Source: an uncultured Gammaproteobacteria bacterium (lineage in GTDB: Bacteria; Pseudomonadota; Gammaproteobacteria; Steroidobacterales; JABDMI01). Taken from it: 33,077 bases of DNA. Shown here piece by piece: positions 3,205-23,714 of this stretch. The translations under genes were made by a program, and so were the position numbers. The notes beneath the pieces are model-generated. The model made no database searches, was not told the origin of the DNA, and worked only from the letters and a program-made list of their open reading frames with translations. Where the stretch lies: positions 1 through 33,077 of the forward strand of contig CAJQOG010000082.1 in assembly GCA_905479875.1 (NCBI GenBank). The letters are read 5' to 3'. How positions within the stretch are numbered: the first letter of the stretch is position 1; each line of letters begins with the position of its first letter.

Positions 3205-4113
3205 ATGGTATTGCAATCAGAAGTTTCAATCGTTTTTGCTGACATAGTCGCTAGCACTGAGCTATTTGACTTGCTTGGTGAGAGTCAGGCGCGTGAAACA
3301 ATAAATTATTGTTTACATATTATGAGTAGGGCCGTTTTAGATAATGATGGCAGCGTCATTAAAACTATCGGTGATGAAATTCTAGCAACGTTCAATTCTC
3401 CTGATGATGCCATTGAGGCTTCACAGCAGATGCATGAAAAAATATCTGATACTTTGGTTGTTAAAGGACGCTCAATAAATTTACGTATTGGTGCTCATCA
3501 CGGTGTTGTTACACGTGAAAAAAATGATATTTCTGGTGCCTCAGTTCATCTAGCTGCACGCATGGCGGGCCAAGCTAAATCAGCTCAGATAGTTATTAGT
3601 GGTCACATGCGAGAATTACTAGGGGCGGTTTGGAAAAGCTCAAGCCGACAAATTGATGTGACCAAAGTTCAAGGAATGAGCGAAGACATCGAATTATATG
3701 AAGTGCATTGGAAAGTTGAAGGTGTAACCAGTTTAGTACCAATCGGAAACTTTAAAGACTTTGAAGTAGAAAAATCAGTTTCGTTAAAATTAACTTTCAA
3801 CGGTAAAGATATTTTTGTTGATGAAAATAATCCTGGTGCAAATTTAGGTCGATCAGAAGAAAACGATATTTCAGTGAACCATGATTTAGTCTCTCGAGTA
3901 CATACAAGAGTTGAGTTGTATAAAGGTAAGTTTCGACTGCAGGATAAAAGCACCAATGGCACATATGTTAGACCTGCTTCTGGACAACCAGTATTTGTAA
4001 GAAGAGATTATCTAACCTTAAATGGCAGTGGAATGTTTGGCCTTGGGCAAGACGTTACCGCAAATTCGCCCTATGCAATACGTTATATAATTAGCACTCA
4101 AAAGAAGGACTAA
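3205..4113 (+). CDS. Class III nucleotide cyclase domain fused to C-terminal FHA domain
   Basis: Residues about 5-150 form a class III adenylate/guanylate cyclase homology domain. The two metal-binding aspartates are visible in FADIVAST (D13) and TIGDEILATF (D57), with Lys53 in the nucleotide-specificity region. The transition-state pair normally read as V-N-x-A-A-R is V-H-L-A-A-R here (His115, Arg119). Residues about 195-295 form a forkhead-associated domain with GRS (215-217), SRVH (230-233) and NG (251-252), the phosphothreonine-binding signature. The protein has no membrane segment. A cytosolic cyclase tethered to or controlled by a Ser/Thr-phosphorylated partner is the natural inference, but no kinase gene is nearby. 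No Shine-Dalgarno is evident before the ATG. Whether it makes cAMP, cGMP or nothing is not decided by the sequence. Confidence 0.85.
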   Translation: MVLQSEVSIVFADIVASTELFDLLGESQARETINYCLHIMSRAVLDNDGSVIKTIGDEILATFNSPDDAIEASQQMHEKISDTLVVKGRSINLRIGAHHGVVTREKNDISGASVHLAARMAGQAKSAQIVISGHMRELLGAVWKSSSRQIDVTKVQGMSEDIELYEVHWKVEGVTSLVPIGNFKDFEVEKSVSLKLTFNGKDIFVDENNPGANLGRSEENDISVNHDLVSRVHTRVELYKGKFRLQDKSTNGTYVRPASGQPVFVRRDYLTLNGSGMFGLGQDVTANSPYAIRYIISTQKKD

Positions 4114-4145
4114 TTTTGCCCCTAAGATTTTTCTATATTTAGTAA

Positions 4146-4697
4146 TTATTCTTCACGCATTTTTTCAATATCTTCAACTGCAGTAATACGCGCGATGATT
4201 CCAAAATAAGGGTTGTCTATATAGTGCGTTGTCTTACTTCTTAATCTTCTCTTTTCATTTAACAAAGTGACTGTGTTGTTATCTACACTTCTCTCAATAT
4301 TAAAATCAAGATGTAAGTATCTATTTAGATAAAGAGCCACTGTGCCTTCTAAACCTGGAATCCAACGATTTATATTAATCGATCCAGCTTCTTCTTTACT
4401 AAGTCCTTCTTGTATCCAGGAAATATGTTTAAGTAGGCGAAAATTCCGGCTTCCTTTAATGCGTTGTGCGTCCTCTTTAAGTTGTAAATCTTCAGTATTC
4501 ACATCAGTGAAATTTACTAAGCGCGGGTATTCAAAGTTATCGTATTTAGCCTTAGCTTGGGCTTCCGGTGAAGGGCTAGCGTATATGTGATCAAACACAA
4601 GTAACTCAACTTGAAATTCTTTGGCTTGCAGGCTAAAGCTAGCAATTGAGTAAATTGAAAAAATGAATGAAAGTAAAACGATTTTGTAAAGTTTCAT
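4146..4697 (-). CDS. csiV: CsiV-family periplasmic peptidoglycan-binding protein
   Basis: This 183-residue protein begins with a clear signal peptide (MKLYKIVLLSFIFSIYSIAS..., likely cut after LQA). The mature part opens with FQVELLVFDHIY, the strand that starts CsiV-family proteins, and later has GTVALYLNRYLHLDFNI and RRLRSKTTHYIDNPYFGIIARIT. The location immediately downstream of mfd on the same strand is the usual neighbourhood of this family in gammaproteobacteria. In Vibrio cholerae CsiV binds peptidoglycan and works with LpoA to activate the synthase PBP1A. That role is carried over here by family only. It converges with the cyclase gene across a short gap (4114-4145) in which I see no terminator hairpin. 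Confidence 0.7.
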   Translation of the reverse strand: MKLYKIVLLSFIFSIYSIASFSLQAKEFQVELLVFDHIYASPSPEAQAKAKYDNFEYPRLVNFTDVNTEDLQLKEDAQRIKGSRNFRLLKHISWIQEGLSKEEAGSININRWIPGLEGTVALYLNRYLHLDFNIERSVDNNTVTLLNEKRRLRSKTTHYIDNPYFGIIARITAVEDIEKMREE

Positions 4698-20125: not shown

Positions 20126-20623
20126 ATGATTTCCCTTAAAGTGAAGCCTAAAAGTGTTCTCTTTGTTTGTCTGGGGAATATTTGTCGTTCGCCAACGGCG
20201 CATGCTGTATTTGAGAGTATGTTACAAGAGGCTGACCTGAAAAATAGTGTCCTTGTCGACTCTGCAGGTACTGGTGCTTATCACGAGGGTAATAAGCCTG
20301 ATGCTCGTATGATGAAAGCTGCAAAACAACGTGGTGTTGATTTGAGTTTTCTCTGAGCAAGAGCGGTGCATCAAAATGACTTTGAGAAATTCGATTTGAT
20401 TTTAGCAATGGATAAAGCTAATTATGAAGATCTTATTGAAATATGCCCAATCGAATACCAAGATAAGGTAAAAATGTTTTTAAGTTTCTCTAATAATATA
20501 TCTCTGCACTCTGTTCCTGATCCATACTATGGTGGATCAAAGGGCTTTGAAGATGTTTTAGATTTGGTAGAAAAAGCATGCTCCGGATTATTCAAACTTT
20601 TTTTTAATTTAAAAATTTTCTGA
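20126..20623 (+). pseudogene. Low-molecular-weight protein tyrosine phosphatase gene with in-frame stop
   Basis: The two halves (20126-20356 and 20357-20623) are in the same frame, divided by a single TGA at 20354-20356. The first half carries the P-loop VCLGNICRSP (nucleophile Cys15, Arg21). The second carries RAVHQNDFEKFDLILAMD and the general-acid loop DPYYGG. Family members usually have an arginine just before A-R in this stretch, so the TGA most simply replaces a CGA codon by one C-to-T change. The rest, about 165 codons, is full length and shows no frameshift. Truncation at residue 76 would remove the acid loop, so the product should be inactive unless the stop is read through. The family includes Wzb-type regulators of polysaccharide export and PtpA-like enzymes. 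A sequencing error is possible. It would be the last gene of the kdsB operon, just before the IS. Confidence 0.85.
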
Positions 20624-20644
20624 AAATAAAAAAGCCCGCATCAA

Positions 20645-20670
20645 TGAACTGAACCCCATAAGTTGGACAC
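20645..20670 (+). repeat. IS left inverted repeat (IRL)
   Basis: It starts TGAACTGAACCCCA and continues to TTGGACA, and pairs with the complement of 22054-22079. Its inner part is also the left arm of the hairpin at 20652-20683. Confidence 0.88.
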
Positions 20671-20683
20671 AACTTATGGGGTT
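20652..20683 (+). promoter_or_regulatory. Strong hairpin with T-run just before the transposase start
   Basis: A perfect 14-base-pair stem (20652-20665 with 20670-20683) closes a 4-base loop GACA and is followed by three further T residues. It looks like an intrinsic terminator and ends 5 bases before the OrfA ATG at 20689. GGGG at 20678-20681, the only plausible ribosome-binding sequence, is buried in the stem. This would block both transcription and translation entering from outside the element. Confidence 0.75.
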
Positions 20684-20688
20684 TTTCT

Positions 20689-21207
20689 ATGAAGTATGAT
20701 TTAATCTTTAAGCAATCTGTGATTGCTTATTACGATGCAGGCAATGGCTTACAGGCCACAGCTAAGCACTTTGGTATTGCTTATAAAAGCACTGTTGATA
20801 AATGGGTAAAGCAATATAAGTTTGGTGGTGTTGAAGCCATCAGGCCCAAACGTAGTAAGGCAGTCTATTCAGCTGATTTCAAGTATCAAGTTCTGACCGT
20901 CATGGAGCAAGAGGGCTTAAGCGAAGCCGATACAGCACTCCAGTTTAGTATCACGTCACCCAGTTTAGTCGGTGTGTGGCGAAAGCGGTATGCAAGCGAT
21001 GGTATGCTAGGTCTCATGCCAAAACCTAAAGGAAAGCGTCCTATGTCTAAGAAAGCCAAGAATGCTTACATTGCTGACAAACCTGACGATGAGAAAACGA
21101 TAGCTGAGCTAAAGCGTGAGCTTGACTATCTACGTGCGGAGAATGAGTATCTAAAAAAGCTCGATGCCTTGCCAGCGACACCAAGCAACCCGAAAAAGCA
21201 AGGCTAA
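20689..21207 (+). CDS. IS3-family transposase OrfA
   Basis: OrfA is the DNA-binding part of the transposase and recognises the element ends. The 172 residues contain two helix-turn-helix units: residues about 10-45 (GLQATAKHFGIAYKSTVDKWVKQYK) and about 65-105 (GLSEADTALQFSITSPSLVGVWRKRY). A leucine-zipper-like helix follows (IAELKRELDYLRAENEYLKKL), through which OrfA and the fusion protein multimerise. The doubled helix-turn-helix is typical of the IS150 group. The slip site is at codons 155-157. If no shift occurs, translation stops at 21205-21207. Confidence 0.93.
   Translation: MKYDLIFKQSVIAYYDAGNGLQATAKHFGIAYKSTVDKWVKQYKFGGVEAIRPKRSKAVYSADFKYQVLTVMEQEGLSEADTALQFSITSPSLVGVWRKRYASDGMLGLMPKPKGKRPMSKKAKNAYIADKPDDEKTIAELKRELDYLRAENEYLKKLDALPATPSNPKKQG
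21153..21204 (+). promoter_or_regulatory. Programmed -1 frameshift signal
   Basis: A AAA AAG at 21153-21159 is in the correct phase in OrfA for a -1 slip. Six bases later a perfect 7-base-pair stem GCCTTGC / GCAAGGC (21166-21172 with 21198-21204) can form a stem-loop. A -1 shift here leads directly into the OrfB frame and gives a fusion of about 452 residues. Confidence 0.88.
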
Positions 21208-21239
21208 TTCAAGACCTACGTGTTCGTTATGCACTGCCT

Positions 21240-22046
21240 TTGCTGTTGTGCGTTACCAACATGCCAAAAAGCAGTTTTTATTATCAATCCAGTCGCTTAA
21301 GTTTGGTTGATAAGTACGAGGGTCTTAAACGTTTGATTCGCAAGATTTATCACGCCCACAAAGGACGCTATGGCTATCGACGAGTTACCTTAGCGCTTAG
21401 GCACCAAGGCCATAAATACAATCATAAGTTAATCTATAAACTGATGAAGCAAATGGGTTTACGAGCAAAAATCAGAGTCAAGAAATATCGTTCTTATAAG
21501 GGCGAAGAAGGCAAGATTACTAACAACAAACTTAAAAGACGATTCACGGCCTCGCGCCCACAACAACGGTGGTTAACGGATATTACGGAGTTTAAAGTCG
21601 GTCATGACAAACTCTATCTGTCTCCGATACTGGATTGCTACAACAATGAAATCATCAGCTATACCTTGTCCCGACGCCCGGTCTTTACGCTGGTGAAAGA
21701 CATGTTGGATCAAGCCATCAAGTTATTGCCGACAAAGCGCAAGAAAGCGCTCATGCTTCACTCTGACCAAGGGTGGCATTATCAGATGAATGCGTTTAGC
21801 AAAACCCTTAAACAGCATCACATAACGCAGAGTATGAGCAGAAAAGGAAACTGCCTGGATAACGCATTAATGGAAGGCTTCTTTGGTACCTTGAAGTGTG
21901 AAACTATTTACCTAAGTAAGCCCAAGTGTATTGAAGAACTGGAGAAGCAGATTCATGATTATATAAAATACTATAACCATGAACGAATACAGCTTAAACT
22001 AAAAGGACTGAGCCCTGTGCAGTACAGAACTCAGTCCATTGTTTAA
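21240..22046 (+). CDS. IS3-family transposase OrfB (DDE integrase), expressed mainly as OrfAB fusion
   Basis: OrfB carries the catalytic core. The acidic triad is visible in WLTDITEF (first Asp), LHSDQGWHY (second Asp) and NALMEGFFGTLK (Glu), followed by YYNHERIQLKLKGLSPVQYR, the family C-terminus. The HTH_21-type region HKGRYGYRRVTLALR lies upstream. The frame is -1 relative to OrfA and is open back to the slip site, so the natural product is probably the OrfAB fusion; the TTG at 21240 is a weak independent start. No disabling change is visible. Confidence 0.93.
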   Translation: MLLCVTNMPKSSFYYQSSRLSLVDKYEGLKRLIRKIYHAHKGRYGYRRVTLALRHQGHKYNHKLIYKLMKQMGLRAKIRVKKYRSYKGEEGKITNNKLKRRFTASRPQQRWLTDITEFKVGHDKLYLSPILDCYNNEIISYTLSRRPVFTLVKDMLDQAIKLLPTKRKKALMLHSDQGWHYQMNAFSKTLKQHHITQSMSRKGNCLDNALMEGFFGTLKCETIYLSKPKCIEELEKQIHDYIKYYNHERIQLKLKGLSPVQYRTQSIV

Positions 22047-22053
22047 AACTAAA

Positions 22054-22079
22054 CTGTCCAAGGTTTGGGGTTCAGTTCA
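22054..22079 (-). repeat. IS right inverted repeat (IRR)
   Basis: Read on the minus strand it begins TGAACTGAACCCCA and then TTGGACA, matching the left end. It lies 7 bases after the OrfB stop. Confidence 0.88.
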
Positions 22080-22100
22080 TTTGGAGTCTTTTTTATTTCC
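22080..22100 (-). terminator. Half of a terminator-like arm flanking the IS
   Basis: GGAG-TC followed by T6 and ATTTCC at about 22083-22100 looks like the right arm and tail of an intrinsic terminator. The left flank of the IS (about 20624-20640) reads AAAATAAAAAAGCCCGC, the left arm of a terminator. The outer A/T parts pair for 11 bases (AAATAAAAAAG with its complement), but the G+C cores (GCCCGC and GGAGTC) do not. See the finding on the breakpoint. Confidence 0.4.
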
Positions 22101-22123: not shown

Positions 22124-22897
22124 TTATGCCGCTTGCTTTTGTTCTAAAGCTTCAAACTCTTCAGCTTTCTCTTTATACAATGGAAAGTTCTCACGCATGG
22201 TATTTTCCATCCATGCAGTTGCCTCTTCAAGCATTTGATCTGCGGTTTTACCTTCAGGCAAAATTGGCTCTCCGATAATCACTTTAATTTTTCCAGGATG
22301 CACCATAAGAGACTTCCCACCCCAAAACTCACCTGCATTGTGAGCAATTAATACTAATGGAACATTAGCTTCTTTTGCCAAGATGACACCGCTTTTACCA
22401 AAACGCCTGGTCTGACCAACAGGCATACGAGTGCCTTCAGGAAAAATAGATACCCATAAACCATCAGCCAAACGTTCACTACCTTTTTCAATTACTTGAG
22501 TTACTGCAGAGGCACCGCTTTTCCTATCGATATCTATAAACTTTAAACGACTTAAGGCTTGACCGAAAACAGGTATAGCCATTAACTCACGTTTAAGAAC
22601 AATAACAAACTGAGGGACTATTCTAAAAATTAACATAGTTTCCCATGCTGATTGATGCTTCATCAACACCACACTTGGGGTTTCAGGCAAGTTTTCTTTA
22701 CCTTCAATTTCATAACTCAAACCTGTGAGACCGACCAAAGCATAGTGCCCAATATTGGCCCAGCTACGTGCAAAAATATATTGTTTTTTATGGCCAAATG
22801 GAATAGTTAACACCACCATTAAACAATTTAACATAGTGCTTGGAATAATAACCGCACCTGCTAAAGTAGAACGTACAGCTGTAAATGCTTTATTCAT
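22124..22897 (-). CDS. 1-acylglycerol-3-phosphate acyltransferase, PlsC-like (copy 1)
   Basis: PlsC-type enzymes add the second acyl chain to make phosphatidic acid. From the ATG at 22897 the protein has 257 residues with an N-terminal hydrophobic segment. The four acyltransferase blocks are block I KHQSAWE, block II FIDIDRK, block III FPEGTR and block IV VLIAHNAGEFW. Block I reads H-x4-E where the textbook motif is H-x4-D, a variant I recall from proteobacterial relatives of this subgroup. A longer open frame begins at 22993, but it overlaps the end of the upstream copy; the ATG 16 bases after that stop is the more natural start. The last gene of the glyQ operon, converging on the IS. It is paralogous to the next gene. 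Confidence 0.88.
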   Translation of the reverse strand: MNKAFTAVRSTLAGAVIIPSTMLNCLMVVLTIPFGHKKQYIFARSWANIGHYALVGLTGLSYEIEGKENLPETPSVVLMKHQSAWETMLIFRIVPQFVIVLKRELMAIPVFGQALSRLKFIDIDRKSGASAVTQVIEKGSERLADGLWVSIFPEGTRMPVGQTRRFGKSGVILAKEANVPLVLIAHNAGEFWGGKSLMVHPGKIKVIIGEPILPEGKTADQMLEEATAWMENTMRENFPLYKEKAEEFEALEQKQAA

Positions 22898-22913
22898 AAA
22901 AAAATTTCCACTA

Positions 22914-23714
22914 TTAAATCTTTCGACTGTCTTCCAAATCACCCGAGGTATCTTGATCTCCCCGCGCCTCATAATATGCTGATTTTTTTGCATATAATGG
23001 ACTTATTTCTTTCTGGGTTGCTTCAATCCATTTTTTGGCTTCGGCAGTAATTTCATTAACTGTTTTATTGCTTGGATCAATAGGTTCACCTATCACTACC
23101 TTAACTTCACCTGGATAAATAAGTAAATCTTGACGACGCCAAAACTCACCTGCATTATGTGCAATCGGAACAATCTTATGCCCAGTTTCTTTTGCGAGGT
23201 ACGCTCCACTGCGGCCATATTTACGTGTTTTACCTATGGGCATCCTCGTACCTTCGGGAAATAACATCACACTAATCCCATTGTTCAAACGCTGGCTTCC
23301 AATTTCAATTATTTGCTCTACCGCAGAGCGGCCACCTTTTCGATCAATACCAATGGCTTCTATTGCACGCAAGCCCCAACCAAAAAACGGCACCTGTAAG
23401 AGAATTTTTTTAAACACCCAGGTATGACGAGGCATAAAATGCTGCAATGTATAAAGCTCCAAAATTGATTGATGCTTAGACCAAAATACACAAGTTTCAT
23501 TTTCTGGGAGATTTTCTTTGCCTGAAACGGTATAGCTAACACCTGTTGCAAATCGTAAAGAAAACATTACCCCATCTGTATAACGATCTACAAAAAACCA
23601 TTGAACTTTACGCCCAAAAGGAAAAGTGATAATGACCAGACTTCCAAAAAATATCGTACACAGCACCAACAACAGGTTGAAAAGCATGGAGCGAATAAAG
23701 ATAATAAATTTCAT
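22914..23714 (-). CDS. 1-acylglycerol-3-phosphate acyltransferase, PlsC-like (copy 2)
   Basis: This 266-residue protein is a tandem paralogue of the downstream gene. An N-terminal membrane segment (MLFNLLLVLCTIFFGSLVIIT) is followed by acyltransferase blocks: I KHQSILE (again with Glu), II IGIDRKGGRSA, III FPEGTRMPIG and IV IVPIAHNAGEFW. The C-terminal tail is polar and charged. It follows gmhB by 7 bases. The two copies align through most of their length but differ enough that this is not a recent duplication. Their acyl-chain preferences cannot be told from sequence. Confidence 0.88.
   Translation of the reverse strand: MKFIIFIRSMLFNLLLVLCTIFFGSLVIITFPFGRKVQWFFVDRYTDGVMFSLRFATGVSYTVSGKENLPENETCVFWSKHQSILELYTLQHFMPRHTWVFKKILLQVPFFGWGLRAIEAIGIDRKGGRSAVEQIIEIGSQRLNNGISVMLFPEGTRMPIGKTRKYGRSGAYLAKETGHKIVPIAHNAGEFWRRQDLLIYPGEVKVVIGEPIDPSNKTVNEITAEAKKWIEATQKEISPLYAKKSAYYEARGDQDTSGDLEDSRKI

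What the first reader, a model, noticed from the sequence alone, without database searches (positions are those of the whole stretch)
20624..22100. IS element at an apparent synteny breakpoint, with no target duplication and unlike terminator half-arms
Seen: the IS has good terminal repeats but its flanks (CAA and TTT) do not repeat. Its left neighbour ends in a terminator left arm with core GCCCGC, and its right neighbour begins with a terminator right arm with core GGAGTC, which do not match each other. Known: in pseudomonads, as I recall, the lol-comEC-msbA-lpxK-kdsB-ptp cluster and the glyQ-glyS-gmhB-plsC cluster lie in different chromosome regions. Inference: the element may mark recombination between two IS copies or a deletion that joined the two clusters, leaving half a terminator from each.
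Basis: partly seen in the sequence, partly recalled or inferred. Interest (0 to 1): 0.55.

Follow-up and report, generated by a model that had tools for sequence, protein, structure and literature searches.

The report
Mobile element in two terminators' halves
A small mobile DNA element that seems to insert into the hairpin loops of gene-end signals appears here between two unrelated gene clusters; its two sides belong to two different insertions, joined either by recombination in the cell or, more likely, by the assembly software.

Summary
A 1,435-bp IS3-family element (window 20645-22079) lies between half-terminators that do not match, with no target duplication.

The partner of the right half was found. 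Contig C184 of the same draft genome begins inside the left end of a second IS copy, continues with TTT and the arm AAAAAAGGCTCC, and then carries an M16 peptidase gene. In two congeners the plsC gene is followed by that M16 gene; in one the terminator between them is intact and empty. So plsC's half belongs to an M16|IS|plsC insertion with a TTT duplication. The ptp half belongs to a second insertion, whose partner (probably rne) is missing from the draft. The window therefore joins two insertions. Recombination in the cell and assembly chimera both fit; chimera is favoured in this 202-contig draft.

Why both sides are half-terminators: the element and its relatives insert into hairpin loops. 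23 of 31 empty sites carry a junction-spanning hairpin above the 95th percentile of random positions, and 16 of 31 are terminator-like against 26 of 9,300 controls. REP-loop targeting by IS3 elements is known. I found no paper on terminator loops in ten searches.

The parts
20645..22079 (+). IS3-family insertion sequence, IS150-like, 1,435 bp, 14-bp exact terminal inverted repeats
   Evidence: NCBIfam transpos_IS3 E 5e-95 for OrfB
20645..20658 (+). left terminal inverted repeat TGAACTGAACCCCA
22066..22079 (-). right terminal inverted repeat TGAACTGAACCCCA
20651..20686 (+). strong hairpin with a T-run at the IS left end, just before orfA (folded stretch 20645-20690); inferred guard against transcription or translation from outside
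   Evidence: -24.6 kcal/mol, z -7.9, 0 of 200 shuffles as good; not listed by the simple terminator scan
20689..21207 (+). orfA, 172 aa, helix-turn-helix
21153..21159 (+). A6G slippery heptamer for a -1 frameshift joining orfA to orfB into a 452-aa OrfAB
   Evidence: frameshifting itself inferred
21240..22046 (+). orfB, 268 aa as listed (frame open from 21147), rve/DD(35)E transposase core; D114, D176, E212 of the 268-aa form
20628..20644 (+). left half of a terminator (A-run, GCCCGC, ATCAA) from the ptp-side insertion
22080..22094 (+). right half of another terminator (TTT, GGAGTC, T-run) from the M16/plsC insertion; its other half is on contig C184
19388..20122 (+). kdsB, end of the left gene cluster
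   Evidence: name from recall plus synteny
20126..20623 (+). low-molecular-weight protein-tyrosine phosphatase gene (ptp) with an in-frame TGA
   Evidence: homologous to the intact G002 ORF
22124..22993 (-). plsC-like acyltransferase, first gene of the right cluster; followed by an M16 gene in both congeners

Best explanation
The element is an IS3-family, IS150-like insertion sequence whose preferred target is the loop of a DNA palindrome, here bidirectional intrinsic terminators between convergent genes. In this lineage it entered at least two terminators: one between the M16 peptidase gene and plsC (3-bp duplication TTT), one behind kdsB-ptp (most likely between ptp and rne). Each insertion leaves one half-terminator on each side. 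The window shows the left side of the ptp insertion joined to the right side of the M16/plsC insertion. Most likely the assembler followed the shared IS sequence from one insertion into the other (chimeric contig). Shown: two insertions, the identity of the right half's partner, the target preference. Inferred: the partner of the left half, and that the join was made by the assembler and not in the cell.
For: C184 starts in the IS left end, carries TTT and the arm GGCTCC that pairs with the window's GGAGTC, then the M16 gene. Joined, minus one TTT, they fold at -17.7 kcal/mol against -9.5 for the window's own flanks; the empty G001 site folds at -22.1. plsC is followed by M16 in G001 and G002. 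The two IS copies differ at IS positions 104 and 122. In G002 the order is kdsB-ptp-rne-rluC-maf-yceD-rpmF-fabH; G000 contig C27 begins at rpmF-fabH, while rne and rluC orthologues were not found (only 35% and 33% paralogues), so the missing block lies just beyond the ptp-side IS. Terminator halves flank every IS end or remnant seen in G000 and G001. Target statistics.
Against: No reads or coverage were available, so a chimera is not shown. The contig contains no N at the IS, and assemblers usually break at such repeats rather than pass through, which a real join would explain. The other half of the ptp insertion (CAA...GCGGGC) was not found (2 matches, neither at an IS end); short contigs are masked (all ends read from contigs under 3 kb were N), so it could be there unseen. 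68 contig ends, 9 of them masked, showed no shared terminal overlaps that would betray the assembler's word length.
Confidence: 0.62

Rival explanations
1. Real rearrangement: homologous recombination between the two IS copies (inversion or exchange), or an IS-mediated one-ended transposition, joined ptp to plsC in the cell.
For: All the two-insertion evidence fits equally; the contig passes through the IS without a gap; a reciprocal M16-IS-rne junction would also leave C184 ending in the IS.
Against: No reciprocal junction was seen; single draft genome; the gene orders on either side otherwise follow the relatives; a deletion would have removed C184's genes, which are in the bin.
Confidence: 0.33
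2. A single ordinary insertion whose target duplication has decayed or was never made, in a poor terminator between ptp and plsC.
For: 7 of 31 sites in the set lack a duplication of 3 or more.
Against: C184 holds the exact missing half and duplication of the plsC side next to the gene that follows plsC in both congeners; the arms do not pair.
Confidence: 0.03
3. The half-terminators are chance features of AT-rich intergenic DNA and the IS has no target preference.
For: 8 of 31 sites fall below the 95th percentile of random positions; six of them (L089, L140, L105, L125, L085, L141) score no better than about one random position in seven.
Against: 16 of 31 sites terminator-like against 26 of 9,300 random positions; 23 of 31 above the 95th percentile, in 14 of 19 genomes or records.
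Confidence: 0.02

Closest known systems
IS150 subgroup of the IS3 family (IS150, ISKpn1, ISPsy9)
   Same: OrfA/OrfB with A6G slippery site, DD(35)E core, TG...CA inverted repeats, 3-5 bp duplications; OrfB about 56% identical to proteins annotated ISKpn1, ISPsy9 and InsK/IS150
   Different: distinct element; no copy above 60% identity in the plasmid collection (best 5,000 records)
IS1397 / ISKpn1 / ISPsy8 (IS3 elements that insert into REP/PU palindromes; PMC1525189, passages read)
   Same: insertion into a palindrome; for ISPsy8 at the symmetry axis of a predicted hairpin with a 3-bp duplication
   Different: the targets here are intrinsic terminators of unrelated sequence, not one repeated REP; shape and T-run are shared, sequence is not
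Group IIC introns (recalled)
   Same: recalled as inserting next to terminator hairpins
   Different: retroelement using RNA; inserts after the stem, not in the loop (recalled)
REP-targeting elements of the IS110 family (IS621, ISPpu9)
   Same: palindrome targeting (IS621; ISPpu9: abstract in the listing)
   Different: other transposase family; IS110 elements use bridge RNAs (title and abstract start in the listing)

Membership tests
IS3 family | OrfB with rve core and DD(35)E | tested here: met
   PF00665, PF13276, PF13333; NF033516 318.8 bits, cut-off 160; D114, D176, E212
IS3 family | two overlapping frames that can be joined by a -1 frameshift | tested here: met
   A6G at 21153 and 452-aa fusion without inner stop; frameshifting itself not measured
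IS3 family | terminal inverted repeats TG...CA and 3-5 bp duplication | tested here: met
   repeats; duplications CTG (C200) and TTT (C184 plus window); the window copy as it stands has none
IS150 subgroup | closest relatives in the IS150 branch | tested here: inconclusive
   about 56% identity to ISKpn1, ISPsy9 and InsK annotated proteins; no tree was built
REP-targeting IS3 elements | insertion at the symmetry axis of a palindrome | tested here: met
REP-targeting IS3 elements | target is a repeated REP/PU sequence | tested here: not met
   the G000 and G001 sites share hairpin shape and A/T runs but have different stems

The most novel reading that the evidence does not exclude
A branch of IS3/IS150-like elements spread from Gammaproteobacteria to Bacillota uses hairpin geometry, chiefly intrinsic terminators, as its target: a safe-haven strategy. 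Its terminal inverted repeats extend the host terminator stem, so that even a 46-bp left-over of both ends (C200) keeps a terminator; recombination between such copies would shuffle convergent gene pairs at their terminators.
Probability: 0.5. Interest if true: 0.6.

Novelty: new variant of a known kind. Interest (0 to 1): 0.42.

Why it matters
It explains the 'half-terminators' as target choice and warns that IS repeats in draft genomes can fake synteny breakpoints; matching terminator halves and duplications give a simple way to re-pair the true flanks. If the hairpin preference holds, terminators are a broad safe harbour for a large IS branch, and the basis of the recognition (cruciform, transcription complex or sequence) becomes testable in laboratory strains.

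Tried and rejected
Single insertion with lost duplication: rejected, because C184 holds the missing half. Deletion between direct IS copies: unlikely, because the M16 genes and rpmF-fabH remain in the bin. Matches of CAA..GCGGGCTTTT elsewhere in G000 (C73, C107): C107 appears to be a complete unrelated terminator, C73 has no IS end; neither is the lost half. TGAACTGAACCCG in C174 lies in coding-looking sequence, a chance match. IS1447 paper (PMC6211511; abstract and find passages read): about slippage, not terminators. Assembler word-length test from contig ends: no overlaps, uninformative. Empty site of C200 in G002: only the neighbouring gene aligns (71%), so the site could not be compared. 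PMC95333 and PMC94167 (IS1397, ISKpn1 originals) are not held.

Rows dropped before the count: of 44 relative loci, 15 were left out: L107, L121, L123 (masked flank), L126, L127, L128, L131, L132, L134, L135, L093, L096, L097, L137 (both ends or flanks not found) and L139 (see below). Copies from one genome are not independent (6 from Lysinibacillus xylanilyticus, 4 from G677). A first version of the count, without the four plasmid records, is.

Full report
What is there. The window is contig C82 of a draft genome, G000 (2.23 Mb in 202 contigs, 89% complete). An insertion sequence occupies 20645-22079 with exact 14-bp inverted repeats. It has orfA (172 aa, helix-turn-helix) and orfB (268 aa as listed, integrase core), an A6G heptamer at 21153 that would fuse them by a -1 frameshift into 452 aa, and a DD(35)E spacing. 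At its left end, before orfA, lies a hairpin of -24.6 kcal/mol (z -7.9) followed by T residues, which may block transcription or translation from outside (inferred; the simple scan did not list it). Similar left-end hairpins are visible in relatives.

The breakpoint. The flanks are CAA and TTT, and the arms GCCCGC and GGAGTC do not match; joined, they fold at -9.5 kcal/mol. The same genome holds a second copy: C184 begins with 202 bases of the IS left end, 99% identical, differing at IS positions 104 and 122, then TTT and GGCTCC with an A-run (read towards the IS), then an M16 peptidase gene. In G001 (same genus) plsC and that M16 gene face each other across an intact, empty terminator AAAAAAGGCTCCTTAAAGGAGCCTTTTTT. 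In G002 M16 also follows plsC, with two small ORFs between. C184's half joined to the window's right half, minus one TTT, folds at -17.7 kcal/mol. The right side of the window's IS is thus the right side of an M16|IS|plsC insertion.

The left side. In G002 kdsB-ptp is followed by a convergent rne and then rluC, maf, yceD, rpmF, fabH (gene names recalled from sequence). rne lies in the flank of 4 other kdsB loci among the 30 examined (L015, L036, L040, L041). In G000 no rne or rluC orthologue was found (best 35% and 33%), but contig C27 begins at rpmF-fabH, collinear with G002. The missing block lies just beyond the ptp-side IS. A search for the other half (CAA, up to 6 bases, GCGGGCTTTT) gave two unrelated places. 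Short contigs are masked in this copy of the genome, so it may exist unseen.

So two insertions are joined. Recombination in the cell or an assembler's step from one copy to the other gives the same sequence. I favour the assembler (0.62 against 0.33), because this is a fragmented draft and the gene orders otherwise follow the relatives; no reads were available. The uninterrupted pass through a repeat speaks for a real join.

Why terminators. Other IS traces in the genus also sit in terminators: C200 has a 46-bp left-over of both ends with CTG on each side inside GCGACC/GGTCGC; C62 has a right-end remnant inside GCGATTCA/TGAGTCGC; G001 C79 has a left end next to AAAAAAAGCCACTCATTT. To test this beyond the genus I collected relatives (OrfB mostly 48-58% identical) and named plasmid records. 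Of 44 relative loci 29 gave both ends with readable flanks; with the two own sites this makes 31. A junction-spanning hairpin at or above the 95th percentile of 9,300 random positions occurred at 23 of 31, at or above the 99th at 15 of 31. Terminator-like sites were 16 of 31 against 26 of 9,300 (Fisher p 3e-31, copies not all independent). Duplications of 3 or more bases occurred at 24 of 31 against 3.4% of mismatched flank pairs. The G677 copies sit in one repeated REP-like palindrome. Against it: 8 of 31 sites fall below the 95th percentile, L089, L140 (ISPsy9), L105, L125, L085 and L141 (ISKpn1) clearly so.

Known background. Tobes and Pareja 2006 (PMC1525189; passages read) report IS3 elements in REP palindromes, ISPsy8 with a 3-bp duplication at the symmetry axis. 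I saw no paper describing terminator loops as IS3 targets in ten searches; the library lacks most subscription journals, including the original IS1397 and ISKpn1 papers.

Verdict. Observation confirmed; interpretation partly supported; the breakpoint itself is ordinary or artefactual, the target preference is the more interesting point.

Noticed in passing
window 20126-20623: The ptp gene downstream of kdsB has an in-frame TGA in its middle, while the G002 homologue is open; a broken gene, a strain variant or a base error.
   Followed up: partly
L084 (G000 C200) 4109-4154: A 46-bp element made only of the IS left and right ends, with CTG on both sides, in a terminator loop: a deletion left-over or a minimal mobile hairpin.
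   Followed up: partly
L083 (G000 C62) 2720-2747: A right-end remnant of the IS inside another terminator.
   Followed up: no
L126 (G465 C169) left end near 914: An element from another family whose left end and hairpin are nearly identical to the window's IS although OrfB is only 65% identical over the 202 residues present; it also abuts an A-run arm.
   Followed up: no
L124, L130, L133, L136 (G677): Four copies of a related IS in the same GTCCCCGC/GCGGGGAC palindrome, in both orientations, suggesting a REP-specific relative.
   Followed up: partly
window 22124-23714: Two adjacent plsC-like acyltransferase genes (44% identical) as a tandem pair, conserved in G001 and G002.
   Followed up: no
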